Below are positions 18,510 to 41,416 of a DNA stretch of 64,000 bases, one piece after another. Source of the stretch: Chlorophyllum brunneum (taxonomy: Eukaryota > Basidiomycota > Agaricomycetes > Agaricales > Agaricaceae); the NCBI GenBank assembly GCA_963576785.1, contig OY756140.1, forward strand, positions 3,224,001 through 3,288,000. Reading direction: 5' to 3'. The notes under the pieces were generated by a model. It searched no databases, was not told the origin of the DNA, and worked only from the letters and a program-made list of their open reading frames with translations. How positions within the stretch are numbered: the stretch's first letter is position 1; every line of letters begins with the position of its first letter. The position numbers and the translations under genes are program-made.

Positions 18510-20344
18510 ATGGAGAATCTCGCAACCCGTCGTTCGCGGAGGAGCACCGCTGGGAATCGGTAGGCACTCCTTCCTCTTCTTCCAATCATGTCTTTGGACC
18601 TCCAGCACCCGCTCACGACTACTCAGTATGGAAGCGGCATTGGCGGAAATGGCCCTCGATGATGTCAGCAGAGATTTGGAGGATGACAAGGAGTTTGTCA
18701 ACGCAAAGGGTGCGTTTATAGGGCTTACATTTTGTTGGCTGGGGCTAATAAGACCATAGATGAGGAGGATATATTCGAATCCGACTTTGCCAGTACGGAT
18801 GAAGAAGCGAATCGGGAGGACCTCGATGAGGAGGAGAAGGCTATTCACGATGAAGAGAAATCTGCTCGCAAAGTATTTCCACAACTCATCTCTACTCTAT
18901 TCAATCACTAATAATACACCTTCAGGCCGCGCGAGCACGTCTGGAGAAGCGGACCGCGGCGGCGCATGCCAAACAAAAGGAGACCTTCAATCCCCAGGCA
19001 GTCGCTCCAGTAATTAAGCTGAAACCAAAAACAAGTGCGGCTGCCGTTCCAGACGCCAGTGGTCAAGATGTGCCAAGGCGAATTGGGCAGAAGAGAAAGA
19101 GCCAGCGGAGACATACTGTCCTGAACACCAGCGCCACTGACACCAGGGCCAGGGAAGCTGGTGAAAAGAAGGTGTGCGCACCTGGCTAGATAACCGTTTA
19201 TCTTCGCTCATAGCGTCCCTAGGCCTCTGCGCCGAAGAAATTCAAACCTACTGTCCGGTCGTTTTCTCAGGCCGAGCTGATTCAAACTGCACTGGACAAC
19301 GAGGAAGGCAACATTAAAGAACACAAGAATTACCTCAGCGTAGAGGAGGAGAAACGAAAGAAGGCTCGAGCCATCAAGATGCCTGCCGTTGAAGGTCCTC
19401 TACTTCGTTGGGTCAGCAAGATTGAAGAGGAAAAGTTTAAAGTCAACGTTGAAGTAACACCTCCTCAACCTCAGGCACCTGCTGTCCCATCCTATCCAAA
19501 CTACCCTCAGAGCTATTATAACGCGTACTATACCCAACTATTTCAATATCTTGCTGCTCAATCAGCCTCAGCGTCTTCGTCTTCAAGCAATGTCCCTCAG
19601 GCTGGTTCAAGTTCCCAACCTGCTGCTGGTCAAACTTCGACGTCACAATTGGCCATTGCACCCGCCACTTCATCTTCTACGCCTTCTGCACCGACTGCGT
19701 CGTCCGCACCAGCAACCGCTGCAACAGCCCAGACAACACAAACAGCCGCGTCCGCATTCTCGACGTTCCGACTGCCGACTACCCCTTCTGCCTATCCCTA
19801 CGGACTTTATACCCCCACCCCCACAACAACAACTGCTGGAGCGATTCCAACGACCAGTAGCACGTTTCACTCTTCATTATTCACTCCTACAACGGTACCA
19901 GCACCCGCACAACCTCAACAAAAGCAGTATGTTGAGGAAGAGCGCACTGAAAATGTGACGAAGAACTATGTGATTCACGAGGCCGGTCAGCGTGAAGGAA
20001 TTGCAAAGCCGCCTTGGAAGGATACGATGAGGGCCATGTTTGGTGAGCATGTCAAGTGGGAGGAGCTCAAGGTGCTCAGTGGGAAGGGACGGCCTTTAAG
20101 TGAGTCCGCAAATAAGTGTTCATCACTCTCAGTAACTTGCTAACAATTCTGTTCAGGTCGAGTGAAGCAACGGTGTGCGATTACTGGCCAAAGTGCACCT
20201 TATTTAGATCCACGCTCAGGTGCGCCGTTTGCCGACGCGGAGGCCTTCAAGGTGCTTTCAGATATCCTTGAGCACCACTATATCTGGAGTCCCGAGCTCG
20301 GGTGCTACATTGGTCGAGATGAAAAAAATTCGTTTTCTATGTAA
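18510..20344 (+). CDS. VPS72: VPS72/YL1 (Swc2), SWR1-complex H2A.Z chaperone subunit
   Basis: The nuclear YL1 protein binds the H2A.Z-H2B dimer in the SWR1 remodeller. Exon 1 gives MENLATRRSRRSTAGNR, spliced (intron 18560-18626) to MEAALAEMALDDVSRDLEDD, the conserved YL1 N-terminal H2A.Z-binding start. Acidic exons follow (DEEDIFESDFASTDEEAN), then APKKFKPTVRSFSQAELIQ and EEEKRKKARAIKMPAVEGP. A low-complexity Pro/Ser/Ala/Thr-rich insert occupies the centre. The C-terminal YL1 domain reads KQRCAITGQSAPYLDPRSG followed by PFADAEAFKVL, ending at the stop 20342-20344. The insert is long for the family. The first ATG at 18510 is supported by the RRSRR motif found at the start of YL1 proteins. Confidence 0.9.
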
Positions 20345-20722
20345 GAAAGCAAAGCTCGAAAGCATATCGACAGTATGCAATTGTCTAGTTATACAAAATT
20401 GCGTATCCTGATTGAGTCCACTTACAGGAACACATTACGGGTGCGAAAACGAAGATGACTATACTACTTGAACGTCGTCAAATATTGCTGACGAGTTCGA
20501 ACAACGATCCGTTTTTCCTTCCAACAGCAACGCCAAGTGATTGTGGTATACAATGAAATGCGAATGCCCCGATCCGAAATGATGATGACGAAGAGTGGAC
20601 CCCGGCCGAAAGAATAATGATTGCTTAAGAAAAGGTCAACGTTAGCAGTGAGATAGGAGTCGAAAGAAAAGAATGCTCACGCATGATGATATGAATCATG
20701 ACCAGAGGGCGCTGCGTGATGT
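20345..20722. other. Downstream flanks of VPS72 and pheromone gene 1
   Basis: There is no protein gene here. The right part (20428 on) belongs to the duplicated pheromone unit. It contains a likely 3'-UTR intron of pheromone gene 1 on the minus strand, 20624-20680 (57 nt): donor GTGAGC, branch-like CTAAC, acceptor AAG. Confidence 0.5.
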
Positions 20723-20860
20723 TCAGGCAATCACACAGTAGGCGGGGTTACCTCCACCACTAGTCTCCTCGTTCGAAGGAATAGATGTGGTAGGATCCTC
20801 AGAATTTGTTGAGGACGAGGATGAGAAAAAGTAAGAGGTGAGGCTGGTAAAGGAATCCAT
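20428..20860 (-). repeat. Pheromone-unit duplication, copy 1
   Basis: This segment is a diverged copy of 21511-21898. Both contain, on the plus strand, GAACACATTA near the left end, an AACGAAG stretch, a CGTCAAAT-like stretch, the 3'-UTR intron and the pheromone ORF in the same order. The unit repeats with a spacing of about 1.06 kb, measured from left end to left end. Confidence 0.6.
20723..20860 (-). CDS. Lipopeptide mating pheromone precursor 1
   Basis: A 45-residue single-exon ORF, starting MDSFTSLTSYFF and ending GGGNPAYCVIA. CVIA is a CaaX box: the Cys would be farnesylated, the last three residues removed and the Cys carboxymethylated, as for fungal a-factor-type pheromones. A Glu-Glu pair (SNEET) about ten residues before the Cys is the likely internal processing site, which would release a short peptide with the core SGGGNPAYC. 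The ORF is matched by a second copy at 21785-21898 that shares the MDSF start, the SxPxNEE stretch and the whole end GGGNPAYCVIA. A TATA-like TATAAA lies about 100 bp upstream (20961-20966). These genes act in B-type mating recognition through STE3-like receptors; no such receptor was found in the window. Confidence 0.92.
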   Translation of the reverse strand: MDSFTSLTSYFFSSSSSTNSEDPTTSIPSNEETSGGGNPAYCVIA

Positions 20861-21784
20861 TTCAGTGCGACGGGAGGATGACTTTTGGTTGAGGTGTCAA
20901 GTCGCTAATGGTTTGTACTAGGATGAAATCCTGAAGTTCAGGCGTCTCCATTCCCCAACTTTTATAACAGGCGGAGGCATAAAGGGGTCTCGGGTAAAAA
21001 GCATAGATGGGCGCCTCTGATTCGCTCTAATTGTTGTCCTGGCACCAGTGGGGATACACACATGTATGGTCAGAAACAATAAGACAGGGGTGGACATCAC
21101 AGGGATGAGGGATATATTTTCCGGAATATTGTCAGAATGTTGGTCTGTGAAGACACGCCTGTGCATCTTCTGACTTGTAGAGACAAAAAGCGAGCCGACA
21201 TCACGATTACCTCCTTCCATTTTTGGTGTTTTCGCGCTTATCAATCTATGGGCTATTCTTATCCTCGTCCGCGGCTGACCGACAAAACCAAGTCTGGACA
21301 CAGGTACCGTACCTCATGTGCTAAGTCTTGTGTATACAGATCTGGGGTGATGAACTACGCTGAATTTGGTTAAGTCAAGTCTCTCCGCCGGTAGGTTTAG
21401 CACATTGACGGAGTTTACGGTGACATAGGTTTTCACATAGTTTTCATGTTTTTATACAAACTAGAATCAGCAGTAAATACAATAATAAGCGTGTTCTGAT
21501 ACACATGAAAGAACACATTATCGGAGAAAACGAAGGCGATATAGTATCAACGCCGTCAAATGGGTATCGACGCGTTACGAAAAACAATGGCCTCAGTAGG
21601 TAGTGGTGATACAGGGGTGTGAAGAAAGAAGGCTGAAAATGATGGTGGGCATGAACGAATAATAATAGAATGTTGTTGATCTAAAAGAACGCGAACGAGT
21701 CGTAAGAATAGGGGGGAATACATGAGGTAAAGGACTCACGTCGGTAATGTGATGTCATAATTTGGAGACGAGTTGCGAGTACGC
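20861..21784. other. Promoter of pheromone 1 and downstream flank of pheromone 2
   Basis: No credible protein gene lies here. The left part is the promoter of pheromone gene 1, with a TATA-like box at 20961-20966 and an element at 21073-21097 shared with pheromone gene 2. From 21511 the second duplicated unit begins. It includes a 3'-UTR intron of pheromone gene 2 at 21681-21739 (59 nt, GTGAGT to TTTTAG on the minus strand). Confidence 0.6.
21073..21097 (-). promoter_or_regulatory. Shared pheromone-promoter element, copy 1
   Basis: The plus-strand sequence GAAACAATAAGACAGGGG followed by TGGACAT is nearly repeated upstream of pheromone gene 2 (22004-22030). It contains ACAAT, the core that HMG-box factors bind. 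Fungal pheromone genes are commonly driven by HMG-box regulators such as Prf1, so this is a candidate pheromone-response element. The role is inferred from conservation alone. Confidence 0.5.
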
Positions 21785-21898
21785 TCAAGCAATCACGCAA
21801 TAGGCAGGGTTTCCGCCTCCACCGTCCTCCTCGTTGGTGGGGAGGGAAGAAGCGGGGTCCTCAGTAGGAGCGGAGAAGTAGGTGATGAAGGAGTCCAT
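21511..21898 (-). repeat. Pheromone-unit duplication, copy 2
   Basis: This is the counterpart of 20428-20860. It is shorter because its ORF and spacer are shorter, and it keeps the order of shared blocks. The divergence in the middle suggests an old duplication. Confidence 0.6.
21785..21898 (-). CDS. Lipopeptide mating pheromone precursor 2
   Basis: A 37-residue single-exon ORF. It starts MDSFITYFSAPTEDPASSL, continues with a PTNEED stretch, then a Gly run, and ends NPAYCVIA. The CaaX box CVIA and the acidic processing doublet (EE/ED) match precursor 1. The predicted secreted peptide cores differ slightly (a Gly-rich DGGGGNPAYC against SGGGNPAYC), so both could signal to the same receptor or to related receptors. 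A TATA-like GATAAAAG lies about 65 bp upstream (21960-21967, minus strand), and the shared promoter element lies at 22004-22030. A 3'-UTR intron begins 45 bp after the stop, almost the same distance as in precursor 1. Confidence 0.92.
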   Translation of the reverse strand: MDSFITYFSAPTEDPASSLPTNEEDGGGGNPAYCVIA

Positions 21899-22588
21899 GA
21901 GTATCGGTTAGAGTTCGTTTGGTAGGATATTCTGGGGACTTGGCCGCTCTACCGCCTCGCTTTTATCTGTCCACACGAACTGTAGAGAGGCCTCAGGACC
22001 AGGAGAGACAATAAGCCAGGGGGACAAATGTCACTAGAGCAAGACAGCGCAGCTGAGACAAGGGTGTTTCCCCGGTCAATGTCCGGTAGGCGTCATAGCA
22101 AGAAATTCTCATATGCTTCATCGGAGTGGTTTCCATTCTCAGCCGCTCGGTGCTAATCAGCGCATCCCGTCCCCGGAGGTTCCGATGCGTTTCTTATTGT
22201 CTTGAATTTCATTTAGGGAAATTCTCATGAGCCGTGAATACTGCTGATGCGATCTGCTTCCCACAGCAAGTCATCCCACAAGGCCAGACCACGTCCCCAT
22301 CGACCCACATTTAGCTGCTCGGAATGAAGAGACACCCGGATGCCTTGTTTATTCTTCTATGCGAAAGCATACACTCTGCGGGTGCCTGAAGGGTTCTCGT
22401 TATTGTTGAAGTTTAAAGTGAGAGAAGAGCAAACGTGGGAGTGCGACTGATGACTAATGATCAGAAGCTGTAGCCACGCGGAGACAAACAAAGTACGTCT
22501 CCGCGCACTGAGTGACGCTGGCGCAGTTGTTCAGCTCGCAACGCTGGACAGTCCAACACCGTCGCGAACAACAACGACAGCAGACGCA
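21899..22588. other. Promoter of pheromone 2 and 5' flank of VPS35
   Basis: This 690-bp stretch holds the promoter of pheromone gene 2 (TATA-like box at 21960-21967; shared element at 22004-22030) and the upstream region of VPS35. No other gene was seen. Confidence 0.5.
22004..22030 (-). promoter_or_regulatory. Shared pheromone-promoter element, copy 2
   Basis: The plus-strand sequence GAGACAATAAGCCAGGGG followed by GACAAATG matches the element at 21073-21097. It lies about 105 bp from the start codon, against about 213 bp in copy 1, but is upstream of the TATA-like box in both. Confidence 0.5.
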
Positions 22589-34895: not shown

Positions 34896-37800
34896 ATGCT
34901 TGGCCATCAGTTTGCATATTCTGCGGCTCCTATACGCAAAGTGAGGGAGGTCCAATTTGGCATTCTCTCACCAGAGGAGATCGTGCGTCGCGCCCCCACT
35001 TCAGTCTCTCACCTACCTGCTGACAAATTATTTTTTCTTTCCTCTAGAAAGCTATATCTGTCGCCAAAATCGAGCATCCTGAAGTTATGGATGAGACTAC
35101 CCATAAACCCAAGATGGGCGGTCTGATGGACCCTCGAATGGGAACAATAGACCGAAATTTCAAGTGCCAGACGTGTGGTGAGGGGATGTCTGAGTGTCCA
35201 GGGCATTTTGGTCATATAGAGTTGGCGAGGCCTGTTTTTCATCCGGGTGCGTTGCTTTCACTATACGCTCTACCTGCTCTTTGACCATCTCTGCCTTTTT
35301 CAGGGTTTATTGTGAAAGTGAAGAAGATTTTGGAGTGTATATGTGTAAATTGCGGGAAACTGAAAGCCGACATCGTGAGTCGAATCTTTCCTCTGCTCGT
35401 TTCGCACCCCACCATCCCAATTTTCTGGGGGCTCTCTCCACTCACCATGGGGAACCCCAAACCCGCACCACGCCAGTTCCCTTGACAATCGAGGGCGTTC
35501 TTCCACCCGCTGCGGGGGAGTCAGGGCGCGCGTTTTCGGTCGCTTGATCGCCGCGTCTTTCCCATTGCATCCGCACGGTGCTTGGTTGGACACGAGGTTG
35601 CGGGTGAAATGGGGGGCTGAACGAGGAGTGCGAAAACATATCTTGCTATGGTTGGAAAGGTCGGCCCTTCTCTACTGTAACGCAGTGTGAGATGTGTGTC
35701 TTGGGTCACTGCACATAGACTCGTTGGCTATTGCCCCCTGTTGTTTCCCGACTTGTCCAGATGCTGGATAAACTCTCCTTGTGTAGACACCGATGCTGAC
35801 CACTTGATTTGCATATATTTCTGTCGATATTACACATCCTCGACGCTCACATCACCTACACTCCACGTTACTTGTTATTATATTAAGTCGGATCCCAATT
35901 TCGCGGACAAAATTCGCCATATTCGCGACCCAAAAGCTCGTATGGCTGTCGTTTGGTCCCATTGCAAGACCAAGACTATTTGTGAGCCTGATGATATCAA
36001 GGATGAAGGTGCCGAACCGGAAAACGATGAACCTAAAAAGGGTCACGGTGGATGCGGTCATGTCCAACCTCAGATCAGGAAGGAAGGCTTAAAGCTCTTT
36101 GTCCAATACAAAAAGACAAAGGATGACGATGACGTTTGTTTCTTTCTCAAATCTATCTACCACCGCGGGTACTAATCTTTCTGGATGAAACAGGAGGCCA
36201 AGTCTATGCAGCCTGACAAGCGCCTCATCACCCCTTCAGAGGTGTATACCGTCTTCAAAAAGATGTCAGATTCCGATCTTCATCTCTTAGGTCTTTCCGA
36301 TGAGTATGCACGACCTGAGTGGATGATTCTCACCGTCATGCCCGTACCACCCCCTCCTGTCCGTCCCAGTATCGCTGTTGACGGTGGTGCCATGCGTAGT
36401 GAGGATGATTTGACCTACAAACTTGGTGATATCATCAAGGCCTCCGCGAATGTTCGTCGGTGCGAGCAGGAAGGTGCTCCCGCTCATGTTATTTCTGAGT
36501 TCGAGCAGCTTCTACAGGTAGCGACGTCCTGTTAGTTTTTTTAAAAATTCCTGACTGACCCATTGGTAGTTCCACGTCGCGACGTACATGGACAATGACA
36601 TCGCAGGTATTCCTCAAGCTCTTCAGAAATCCGGTAGGCCCGTGAAAGCTATCCGGGCTCGACTGAAGGGCAAGGAAGGTCGTCTACGTGGCAACCTAAT
36701 GGGCAAGCGTGTTGATTTCTCCGCTCGTACCGTCATCACTGGTGACCCTAATCTGGAATTGGACGAAGTCGGGGTACCGCGGAGCATTGCCATGAACCTG
36801 ACATTCCCCGAACGCGTGACACCCTATAATATCTCTTACCTTCAAGAACTTGTGCGGAATGGTCCCACTACGTATCCTGGCGCGAGATATGTTGTCCGTG
36901 ACACTGGAGAGCGGATAGATTTAAGGTATAATAAGCGTGCCGATGCTTTCTTGCAGTATGGTTGGATTGTGGAACGTCATCTCAAAGATGGAGAGTAAGT
37001 GGCTCTACTTATATCCATACTTCGGTCTGATATACATCTATCACCATCTAGCTTTGTGCTGTTTAACCGACAGCCCAGTTTGCACAAAATGAGTATGATG
37101 AGTCACCGTGTTCGGTTGATGCCCTATTCCAGTAAGTCGCCTGTGCTGTGTCAGCTACACGCGCTAAATTTTCTGGTTAGCTTTCCGATTGAATCTCTCT
37201 GTGTAAGTATGGCTGCCATGACGGCTCCGACTATCATCTCATGATTCCCCAGTACACCTCCGTACAATGCTGATTTCGATGGCGATGAGATGAACATGCA
37301 GTATGTATTTCTTCCATGCGATTCCTGTTCTCCGCTCAATCCCCGTTTTAGTATCCCGCAAAGTGAAGAGACAAGAGCTGAACTATCACAAGTAGCATGG
37401 GTTCCCCGACAGGTCTGTGCCGCCATGTTCTGAAGTAACCTCGGTTCTTATTCTATACCAGATCATTTCTCCGCAAGCCAACAAACCCGTCATGGGTATC
37501 GTGCAAGACACACTTTGTGGCATCCGGAAATTTACTCTTCGTGATTGCTTCCTGGATTGGAATCAAGTCCAGAATATTCTTCTCTGGGTTCCTGACTGGG
37601 ACGGCTCCATCCCCACACCAGCCATACTCAAACCAAAGCCACTGTGGACCGGCAAACAAATACTCAGTATGACAATTCCCCGGGGTATCAACATTCAACG
37701 ATCCCCCGACCCCAAGTCATCGAATCCTGTTTTCGATGACGGTATTCTGATTGAAAACGGGGAATTGATCTTTGGCATTGTCGATAAGAAGACTGTTGGT

Positions 37801-40800
37801 GCTACTCAAGGCGGTCTCGTCCACGTTGTGTTTCGTGAAAAAGGTCCCGAAATCACACGACAGCTATTCACTGGTCTCCAGCGTGTCGTTAATTACTGGC
37901 TGTTCCACAACGGTTTCAGTATTGGTATTGGTGACACCATTGCTGATGTAAAGACTATGTCCTACATCACCCAGACCATTGCGGACCGCAAAGTCGAAGT
38001 CGCGAAAATCATCGACGATGCCACTCATGACCGCTTGAAACCCAAGCCCGGTATGACCATTCGTGAATCCTTCGAGAGTATGGTCGAGCGCCAGCTCAAC
38101 TTGGCTCGTGACCAATCTGGTCAATATGCCCAGAAGCACTTGAAGGAAGATAACAATGTCAAGCAGATGGTGGTCGCTGGTTCCAAAGGTTCATTTATCA
38201 ACATCTCGCAGATGTCTGTTTGTGTCGGTCAGCAATCCGTTGAAGGTCGTCGTATTCCGTTCGGTTTCCGTCACCGCACGTTGCCGCACTTTACGAAGGA
38301 TGATTTCAGTCCAGAGTCGAGAGGTTTCGTCGAAAACTCGTACTTGCGCGGCCTGACGCCCCAAGAGTTCTTCTTCCATGCCATGGCCGGTCGTGAGGGT
38401 CTCATCGATACCGCGGTCAAGACCGCAGAGACAGGTTATATTCAGCGTCGTCTCGTCAAGGCATTGGAAGACGTTATGGTTTGTTATGATGGCACGGTTC
38501 GCAACTCGCTCGGCGACCTCATCCAGTTCATTTATGGTGAAGATGGGATGGATGGTGCTTTCATTGAGAAGCAGACCATCGAAACCTTTGGTCTGAATGA
38601 CAAGGAGTTTGAGCACAACTACCGTGTTGACGTGACTGACCCTGCTGGTGGATTCTTGCCCGGTGTTCTTCAAGTCGGTATCGACGATAGTTCGCTTGAG
38701 CTGCAGTCTAAGCTTGACGCAGAATTCAAGCAAGTCGTTCAGGATCGCAAGACCCTCCGCAGCTTTATCTACCCTCGCACTCCCACGACACAGCCACACT
38801 ATCTTCCGGTCAACCTTCTCCGTATCGTCCAAAACGCTTCACAGATCTTCCATATTGATCGACGGAAGCCAAGCGATCTCGAACCCGCGTATATCGTCGA
38901 TGCCGTTCGAGAACTCGGGAACCGTCTCGTCGTGGTTCGTGGCGACGATCCTTTGAGCGAAGAGGCTCAGGAGAACGCAACCTTGATGTTCAAGATGCAC
39001 ATCCGAGGAACGTTCGCAACTCGCCGCGTTCTGGAGAAGTTCCATCTCACCCGCGAAGCTTTTGATTGGGTCCTTGGTGAGGTTGAGTCGAAATTCAATC
39101 AGTCCGCTGCCCACCCTGGAGAAATGTGTGGCACCCTTGCTGCTCAGTCCATTGGTGAACCTGCTACTCAGATGACACTCAATACTTTCCACTACGCTGG
39201 TGTGTCAAGTAAGAACGTAACGCTGGGTGTACCGCGTCTGAAAGAAATCATCAACGTCGCCACCAACATCAAAACTCCCTCCCTTACTGTCTACCTCGAA
39301 TCCGAGATCTCCCGTTCCGCTGCACTCGCGAAGAACGTCCAGCAAGAGTTGGCATATACTTCACTACGGACTGTTACTTCCGCTGTCGAAATCTGGTACG
39401 ATCCTGATCCAAGCTCGACCATTATCGACGAGGATTCCGTTTTCGTCGAATCTTTCTTCGCCATCCCTGACGAGGAAATCGAGTCGAAGCTCCACCTACA
39501 GTCACCATGGCTCCTTCGTCTTGAGCTGGACCGTGCCAAGATGATTGATAGGAAGCTTACCATGCATTACGTCGCCAGCCGCATCGCGGAGAGCTTTAAG
39601 ACGGACCTCTTCGTCATTTGGTCGGAAGATAACTCGGAGAAGTTGATCATCCGTTGTCGTGTGTTGGGTAGCCCGGATAAGGACGATGAAGGTTATGGTA
39701 CCGTTGAGGAAGACATCTTTTTGAGGCAGTTGGAGAACACCATGCTTAATTCCGTCAGCTTGCGTGGTGTGAAGGGCATTAATAGGGTGTTCTTGACAGA
39801 GGCAGACAAGGTTGTCGTGTCATCTGATGGCAGCATCCAAACCGGCAAGGAGAAAGAGTGGGTACTAGAAACGGACGGTGTCAACCTGAAGACTGTGATG
39901 TGCATTGATGGGGTCGACTTTACCCGGACATACTCGAACAGCTGCGTTGAAATCTTCAACGTGCTTGGTATCGAAGCAGCCCGCGCAGCAATTATGAAGG
40001 AGCTGCGTGGTGTCATTGAATTCGACGGTTCTTATGTCAACTACCGTCACCTCGCACTCCTTTGTGATTTGATGACTCACCGTGGGACGCTCATGGCCAT
40101 CACTCGTCACGGAATCAATCGCGCCGATACAGGAGCATTGATGAGGTGTTCATTCGAAGAGACAGTCGAAATCTTGATGGAAGCAGCAGCTGTGGGCGAG
40201 AAGGATGATTGTCATGGTATCGCCGAGAACGTCATGTTCGGCCAGATGGCTCCTATGGGCACAGGGGCCTTCGAGGTTGCGCTGGATATCGATATGCTTA
40301 AAGATGCCATCGTTGATCATAGCTTGCCCGTCCAGTCTATGCTTGCCGCTCAACTTGACGATGGCATGACACCAGGGCAGGTAGCGATGACACCTTATGA
40401 TACCAACTCTCCTTTGTGGCATGACGGCATGTTCAAGGGCGAGTCAGCGTCGTTCACTCCTCTGGCCTCTAATGGAGGCGAAGATGCGGCGAGTTTCCAG
40501 TACCTTGGATACGGTCAAAGCCCGCTCGGTGCTGGTGGAATGTCACCTGCTGGGCCCGGATACAGCCCGAGTTCCCCGAATGCCTACTCACCAACCTCGC
40601 CCAGCTTTGTCCCACAGTCGCCTTATGGAGGCGCTACGTCACCTTTCGGTACGTCTCCCTACGCGACATCACCCTTCTACGACAGAAGCAGAGGACCCAC
40701 ATCCCCAACGTACTCTCCAACTTCGCCTACCCTCAACCTTACGTCGCCGGCGTACTCGCCAACGAGTCCACGCTATTCCCCTACGTCACCTTCCTTCTCT

Positions 40801-41416
40801 CCCACGTCGCCGCGCTACAGTCCGCAGTCGCCCTCGTTCAGTCCTACTTCTCCACGCTACTCACCTACTAGTCCCTCGTTCAGCCCGGCGTCACCGAGAT
40901 GTAAGTCTCATATAGCTCCTATTCTGCGAACACATGCTGAAGATGCCTCACTTTCTAGATTCCCCAAGTAAGCTCCTCATAACCTATTTCCGGTGGACGA
41001 CTACTAACTATGAACCTAGCTTCTCCTCGTATGAGTCCGTCTTCGCCGAAATACTCACCTACCTCTCCTATGGCCTCACCTTCATCACCCAAGTATTGTA
41101 AGTAATTTTCTCACACTCTTCAGCCAGCTCAACTGACATCACGAATAGCCCCTACCTCACCCGCCTATTCCCCTGCATGTGAGTATTTCCTCCCAGACCC
41201 GTGTGCCACCTTTGCTAATGTCTCTCCGCTACTCAGCTCCTGCGTACTGTGAGTACAGTAGCACGTACCGTGCCAGACCAAGTCTAACCGTACCTTGTTA
41301 CAGCTCCAACCTCTCCAGCATACAGTCCAGCGTCACCTCAATGGTCTCCTGCAAGCCCTGCCCAGAATGGAACGGGCAGGGCCCACTCATACCAGTCAAA
41401 TCCCTCTTGGGACTGA
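34896..41416 (+). CDS. RPB1: RNA polymerase II largest subunit Rpb1
   Basis: The catalytic subunit of Pol II. The start is [20 protein letters not shown], then [20 protein letters not shown] (zinc-binding clamp head), HPPN-type clamp exons, [20 protein letters not shown], the catalytic [10 protein letters not shown] motif holding three Mg-binding aspartates, and [18 protein letters not shown]. The trigger loop region reads [20 protein letters not shown] followed by [15 protein letters not shown]. The CTD begins near 40550 with [15 protein letters not shown] and continues with about two dozen full or partial heptads. Five introns cut the CTD (40901-40958, 40968-41019, 41098-41148, 41179-41236, 41249-41303), all phase 1. 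The tail after the heptads ends SYQSNPSWD with the stop at 41414-41416. The intron after KLKADI (35375-35887) is 513 nt, ten times the local norm. Confidence 0.96.
35375..35887 (+). other. Unusually long RPB1 intron
   Basis: This intron has donor GTGAGT after KLKADI and acceptor TTAAG before SDPNFADKI. It is 513 nt, while nearly all others in the window are 45-60 nt. No open frame in it has recognisable motifs, and I could not identify a C/D or H/ACA snoRNA in it by eye. Confidence 0.6.
40901..41303 (+). other. CTD intron cluster with 9-nt and 12-nt microexons
   Basis: Exons between the five introns are 40959-40967 (9 nt), 41020-41097 (78 nt), 41149-41178 (30 nt) and 41237-41248 (12 nt). All are multiples of three and begin and end in phase 1. 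Joined, they restore heptads such as [14 protein letters not shown] and YSPASPA without breaks, which is the evidence that the microexons are real. Confidence 0.85.

What the first reader, a model, noticed from the sequence alone, without database searches (positions are those of the whole stretch)
20723..21898. Two unlisted mating pheromone precursor genes in tandem
Seen in sequence: two minus-strand mini-ORFs of 45 and 37 codons, both starting MDSF, both with an acidic doublet ahead of a Gly-rich stretch, and both ending NPAYCVIA. Known: basidiomycete pheromones are short precursors with a CaaX end recognised by STE3-type GPCRs. Inference: this is a B/P-R mating-type locus fragment or a non-mating-type pheromone outpost. 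ORF finders with a usual length cut-off miss them. The two predicted peptides differ by only a few residues, so they may be redundant or recently split in specificity.
Basis: partly seen in the sequence, partly recalled or inferred. Interest (0 to 1): 0.88.

Follow-up and report, generated by a model that had tools for sequence, protein, structure and literature searches.

The report
Non-mating-type mushroom pheromone gene pair
Two tiny neighbouring genes in a mushroom-type fungus encode precursors of short lipid-tagged signal peptides; they belong to a known, poorly understood class of mushroom pheromones that lies outside the mating-type locus and may let the fungus sense itself.

Summary
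In detail: both minus-strand ORFs are where stated, both reach the Pfam Pheromone cut-off, P2 only just, and 150 Markov controls of 64 kb gave no such ORF. They are not part of a B/P-R mating-type locus: all 22 listed STE3 matches in the 38.9 Mb genome lie on contigs C10 and C1, none on the window's C2, and the two receptor-linked pheromone genes, on C10, have other peptides. The pair belongs to a second family here: one intact and one decayed copy 52-54 kb away, and one gene on C5. Relatives in Agaricus and Coprinopsis fit the published non-mating-type consensus. So: new members of a known kind. New details: an upstream element ACAAWAAG at all five loci but not at the two mating-locus pheromone genes; a C5 core identical to an Agaricus one; an unlinked receptor near dynamitin, a reported neighbour of Schizophyllum's orphan receptor brl4. 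Most likely role: secreted farnesylated self-signals read by non-mating STE3-like receptors. Receptor pairing is untested.

The parts
20723..20860 (-). P1: pheromone-like precursor gene, 45 aa, C-terminus NEETSGGGNPAYCVIA
   Evidence: PF08015 29.3 bits
21785..21898 (-). P2: pheromone-like precursor gene, 37 aa, C-terminus NEEDGGGGNPAYCVIA
   Evidence: PF08015 22.3 bits as a protein, 14.9 bits in the genome search; close relative P0001
20960..20966 (-). TATA-like box of P1 (TATAAAA, 106 bases before the ATG)
21960..21966 (-). TATA-like box of P2 (ATAAAAG, 68 bases before the ATG)
21076..21083 (+). ACAATAAG element upstream of P1
21183..21190 (+). ACAAAAAG element upstream of P1
   Evidence: position -330; window coordinates worked out from it
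22008..22015 (+). ACAATAAG element upstream of P2 (within AGACAATAAGCC)
22193..22200 (-). second ACAATAAG element upstream of P2
20675..20680 (-). GTGAGC, possible 5' splice site of a 3'-UTR intron of P1 (possible end at 20624; read by eye)
   Evidence: the strict intron pattern was not met
21734..21739 (-). GTGAGT, possible 5' splice site of a 3'-UTR intron of P2 (possible end at 21681; read by eye)
   Evidence: the strict intron pattern was not met

Best explanation
P1 and P2 are two members of a small family of non-mating-type, pheromone-like lipopeptide precursor genes in an agaricomycete. Shown: intact mini-ORFs, pheromone family, no STE3 match on this contig, three further relatives in the genome (two intact, one decayed), many relatives in other mushrooms, a shared upstream element, and a C-terminal core better conserved than the rest. 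Inferred: the cysteine is farnesylated, the last three residues are removed and the end methylated, the N-terminal part is cut off after EE, and the roughly 10-residue Gly-rich peptide is exported. It would then act as a common ('self') signal made by every nucleus whatever its mating type, read by one or more of the non-mating STE3-like receptors, for example the C1 receptor (position like S. commune brl4) or the receptor pair at C10:1452-1457 kb, which has no recognisable pheromone gene beside it.
For: ORFs, Pfam and chance control. Genome-wide STE3 and Pheromone maps. Relatives whose sources call them 'pheromone-like peptide' (Agaricus bisporus), 'Pheromone' (Macrolepiota) and 'fungal mating-type pheromone' (Coprinopsis cinerea); the C. 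cinerea core GGGSGNGAYC (e.g. P0009) equals the non-mating-type consensus given in PMC8305134 section 15. The C5 gene's EEKNGGYGNNAYC is identical in A. bisporus P0007. ACAAWAAG occurs at least twice within 400 bp upstream at 5 of 5 family loci, against 0.7% of random 400-bp stretches, and at 0 of 2 mating-locus pheromone genes. Core conserved; in 16 C-terminal codons synonymous changes exceed non-synonymous ones in 3 of 3 comparisons. The C1 receptor has a dynamitin gene about 2 kb away, with an asparaginase gene between; PMC8161036 section 20 names dynamitin and Con-6 as neighbours of brl4 and calls these receptors orphans.
Against: No expression data, no peptide detection, no receptor assay. 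P2 is only just over the Pfam cut-off and P3 is below it (22.3 and 17.4 of 22 bits; lower still). The strict 3'-UTR intron pattern fails for P1, P2 and P3. The upstream element was found after looking, four of the five loci are paralogues in one region, and it is absent within 600 bp upstream of five receptors; at the sixth (R1) it lies about 0.9 kb away. Con-6 was not among the families matched by the 9 ORFs scanned near the C1 receptor. The sources' own label for the C. cinerea relatives is 'mating-type pheromone'. Nothing here ties a given peptide to a given receptor.
Confidence: 0.85

Rival explanations
1. The pair is a fragment of the B/P-R mating-type locus and determines mating specificity.
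For: Pfam names the family 'Fungal mating-type pheromone', and sources give that name to C. cinerea relatives; the precursor layout is that of B pheromones.
Against: No STE3 match on contig C2. Receptor-linked pheromone genes lie on C10 with other cores. One predicted family core is identical in A. bisporus, unlike multi-allelic mating pheromones.
Confidence: 0.03
2. The genes are non-mating pheromone genes, but their peptides act through the B mating receptors (a general booster, or a former B ligand) and not through the orphan receptors.
For: PMC8305134 (passages) suggests that the pheromone-precursor-like genes of bipolar A. bisporus could activate the receptor STE3.2, orthologous to mating-type receptors.
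Against: If this fungus is tetrapolar (not known), a ligand made by every nucleus would switch on its own B receptor unless no B receptor recognises it (reasoning, not a result).
Confidence: 0.1
3. The genes are redundant leftovers of an old expansion, prenylated or not, with little or no signalling role.
For: One copy in the region is decayed: no in-frame ATG and an altered end, although it keeps its upstream elements.
Against: Core codons change mostly synonymously; upstream elements are kept at 5 of 5 loci and TATA-like boxes at P1, P2 and P3; close relatives exist in other sources.
Confidence: 0.12
4. The ORFs are chance open frames.
For: They are only 37 and 45 codons long.
Against: 0 matches in 150 Markov controls, Pfam hits and full-length homologues.
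Confidence: 0.005

Closest known systems
Agaricus bisporus pheromone-like peptide precursors (PMC8305134: section 15 read, other passages seen; records P0002, P0007)
   Same: 44-54 aa, MDS/AF start, charged doublet, Gly-rich core, AYC-VIA end in the two records, no pheromone precursor gene linked to the PR-orthologous receptor; the C5 core is identical to P0007
   Different: P1 and P2 carry NPAYC, not NNAYC; three of the four A. bisporus genes flank a centromeric island and at least three have EST support, with an intron in the 3' UTR, which I could not show for P1 and P2
[quoted passage not shown]
   Same: Gly-rich core and AYC end, described as non-mating-type (records)
   Different: a few core residues differ; two-module precursors occur among the wider relatives, and the one used as query found no such gene in this genome
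B mating-type lipopeptide pheromones, e.g. of Flammulina velutipes (ER doublet, predicted mature ERHGQGMAYTC; PMC5100862, passages)
   Same: small CaaX precursors with the same kind of processing signals
   Different: linked to STE3 receptors; P1 and P2 are not receptor-linked and have another core

Membership tests
Fungal lipopeptide pheromone precursor (PF08015) | profile match over the curated cut-off | tested here: met
   P1 29.3 and P2 22.3 bits as proteins, cut-off 22; P2 only just, and 14.9 in the genome search
Fungal lipopeptide pheromone precursor (PF08015) | small precursor, MD-x-F start, C-terminal CaaX | tested here: met
   aligned with the two other family genes and the two C10 pheromones and with 18 homologues
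Fungal lipopeptide pheromone precursor (PF08015) | charged doublet about 10-15 residues before the C-terminus | tested here: met
   EE followed by 13 residues in P1 and P2; the feature as stated in PMC5100862 and PMC3140503 (passages)
Fungal lipopeptide pheromone precursor (PF08015) | farnesylation, cleavage and secretion | not testable with these tools
   needs mass spectrometry or a response assay
[quoted passage not shown]
   no STE3 match on contig C2 among the 22 listed
[quoted passage not shown]
   TSGGGNPAYC, DGGGGNPAYC against the consensus of PMC8305134 section 15; P for G/N is a difference
[quoted passage not shown]
   only one genome of this fungus was searched
B / P-R mating-type locus | receptor and pheromone genes clustered | tested here: not met
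   receptor matches lie at C10:1452-1457 kb, C10:1561-1568 kb and C1:2171-2172 kb; the C10:1561-1568 kb cluster has the linked pheromone genes

The most novel reading that the evidence does not exclude
These peptides are the missing ligands of the orphan STE3-like receptors (brl4-type) of mushrooms: a mating-type-independent self-signal used for hyphal self-sensing, switched on together through an ACAAWAAG element that resembles HMG-box sites (resemblance recalled, not tested).
Probability: 0.3. Interest if true: 0.7.

Novelty: new member of a known kind. Interest (0 to 1): 0.38.

Why it matters
Mushrooms keep several STE3-like receptors that do not control mating; PMC8161036 (section 20, part 1 read) states that those of Schizophyllum commune are so far orphans and offers self-pheromones as possible ligands. 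A genome with a compact set of four intact non-mating precursors, a receptor in a brl4-like position and a shared upstream element gives a short list of peptide-receptor pairs to test.

Tried and rejected
Mating-type fragment: rejected by the receptor map. The single-sequence protein search found nothing; alignments did. Strict 3'-UTR introns within 300 bases: met for C5 and B1, not for P1, P2, P3, the decayed copy or B2, background 14%. A GTGAGY within 100 bases after the stop is seen in P1, P2 and C5 but not P3, background 3.6%, so the intron claim stays weak. Around the three other genomic copies of AGACAATAAGCC (5 kb each) there is no pheromone-like ORF; one 50-aa ORF ends CLFV but lacks the MDxF start. 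A two-module precursor used as query matched only the known C2 genes; an ERRGGGGNCYC-type precursor matched nothing (which says that an empty answer shows nothing). Searches for print: NPAYC as a string (one unrelated paper), CVIA with pheromone and mushroom, non-mating pheromone genes and orphan receptors; the library is open-access only.

Full report
Observation. The window holds two minus-strand mini-ORFs, P1 (20723-20860, 45 aa) and P2 (21785-21898, 37 aa), as described. As proteins both match Pfam PF08015 at or above its cut-off, P2 only just (29.3 and 22.3 bits against 22); in the six-frame genome search P2 scores 14.9, below it. A degenerate DNA pattern for NPAYCVIA occurs twice in the 38.9 Mb genome, both times here, with no match of the reversed control. 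In 150 Markov controls of 64 kb no comparable ORF arose; the window has two. They lie between a YL1-domain ORF (19223-20143, +) and Vps35-domain ORFs (from 22791, +).

Genome context. The window is part of contig C2 (3224001-3288000) of an unnamed 14-contig genome. The 22 listed STE3 matches fall in six places: C10 at about 1452.7-1453.7, 1456.0-1457.0, 1561.9-1562.9, 1563.3-1564.3 and 1566.6-1567.6 kb, and C1 at 2171.2-2172.2 kb (the grouping is mine, and the tool scores only its best candidates). Mini-ORF scans of the fetched stretches (C10:1443-1466 and 1551-1578 kb) found two receptor-linked pheromone genes, C10:1565335-1565511 (ending CVVA, with an ER doublet) and C10:1567971-1568147 (ending CIIA). 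Near the 1452-1457 kb pair the only ORF marked CaaX-like is one of 26 aa ending CVFI without the MDxF start. The two C10 pheromones score 35.1 and 18.8 bits, the second below the cut-off. The likely B locus is therefore C10:1561-1568 kb, and P1 and P2 are elsewhere.

Family in this genome. Besides P1 and P2: P3 at C2:3299013-3299147 (+, 44 aa from the MDSF start...NEETGGGGNPAQCIIA; 17.4 bits, below the cut-off); a decayed copy from C2:3298101 (no in-frame ATG, end CVTT); and a gene on C5:169521-169673 (-, 50 aa from the MDVF start...DEEKNGGYGNNAYCVIA; 29.5 bits). The P3 and C5 frames are open further upstream (65 and 75 aa from the first ATG); the inner starts are chosen by likeness. P3 and the decayed copy lie 52-54 kb from P1 and P2, on the other strand; between the two places (L035+L036 against the window) the three matches at E <= 1e-3 are all within the coding parts.

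Relatives. The first protein search, with P1 alone, found nothing. A four-sequence alignment found 18 proteins at E <= 10, and a wider alignment 155 at E <= 1, of which 120 were listed. Named sources include Agaricus bisporus, Macrolepiota, Coprinopsis, Tricholoma, Hypholoma, Hebeloma, Laccaria, Pleurotus, Serpula and Pisolithus. P0001 resembles P2 over its whole length with an identical core; P0003 resembles P3; the C5 gene's EEKNGGYGNNAYC is found in A. bisporus P0007. Of 121 records held, 116 have Cys at position -4. PMC8305134 (section 15 read; passages) describes A. bisporus pheromone-like peptides and gives the non-mating-type consensus of C. cinerea and L. bicolor. PMC4101180 (passages) reports four precursors in Pycnoporus resembling presumed non-mating-type ones. 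So the class is known; these are new members.

Selection and regulation. In the last 16 codons P1/P2 differ at 7 codons synonymously and 2 non-synonymously, P1/P3 at 5 and 3, P2/P3 at 6 and 3. ACAATAAG occurs within 300 bp upstream of 5 of 5 family loci, in 1.2% of random 300-bp stretches, and not upstream of the two C10 pheromone genes B1 and B2; of its 5 occurrences in the window 3 are upstream of P1 or P2 and 2 (18012, 46212) are elsewhere, and one lies within the stretch of a C10 receptor gene (1566976). Widened to ACAAWAAG, at least two copies lie within 400 bp at 5 of 5, against 0.7% of random stretches (a background that includes the P1 and P2 promoters); 0 of 2 mating-locus pheromone genes and 0 of 6 receptors (start codons approximate) have one within 400 bp. 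Receptor R1 (C10:1453.77 kb) has three copies 898-965 bp upstream; R1 was examined over 1000 bp, the other genes over 600. The longer form GACAAWAAGC is present at the four C2 loci but not at C5 (read). When five random 300-bp stretches were drawn 3000 times, one draw shared an octamer among all five. Caveats: the element was found after looking, and the four C2 loci are paralogues. The 12-mer AGACAATAAGCC occurs 7 times in the genome, 4 of them at these loci; its reversed control occurs 2 times.

Mechanism. Shown: genes, family, unlinked position, conserved core, shared upstream element. Inferred from knowledge of the family: farnesylation, removal of the last three residues, methylation, cut after EE, export. 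Inferred with less certainty: action on non-mating STE3-like receptors. The C1 receptor has a dynamitin gene about 2 kb away (L042:1348-2587), with an asparaginase gene between. PMC8161036 (text parts 1-3, and section 20 part 1) gives dynamitin and Con-6 as neighbours of S. commune brl4, calls Brl receptors orphans and suggests self-pheromones as possible ligands. Con-6 was not among the Pfam families of the 9 ORFs that I scanned there, I made no search aimed at it, and no receptor tree was made.

Verdict. A real, ordinary-looking set of members of a known but little-understood class; the mating-locus reading fails. Interest comes from the candidate ligand-receptor list and the common upstream element.

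Noticed in passing
P0001-P0121 (homologues): 63 of 121 homologues held carry two pheromone cores in one precursor, the first with an internal C-aa-X; in the 12 commonest tails listed (56 of the 63) H, Q or R follows in 51. In 40 of the 63 the last 8 core residues, Cys included, are identical. How the internal core would be released and prenylated is unclear. Multi-copy precursors are known from rhodotorucine A (recalled).
   Followed up: partly
C10:1454657-1454731 (L022): Three ACAATAAG elements within 75 bases, 898-965 bp upstream of a receptor gene that has no recognisable pheromone gene nearby.
   Followed up: partly
C2:3298101-3298217 (L036): Decayed pheromone-like copy beside P3: core NEEDDGGGNPAYC kept, no in-frame ATG, end CVTT; it keeps three upstream elements.
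   Followed up: partly
window 37396-40971: RNA polymerase II largest subunit (Rpb1 domains 3-7) in one long ORF.
   Followed up: no
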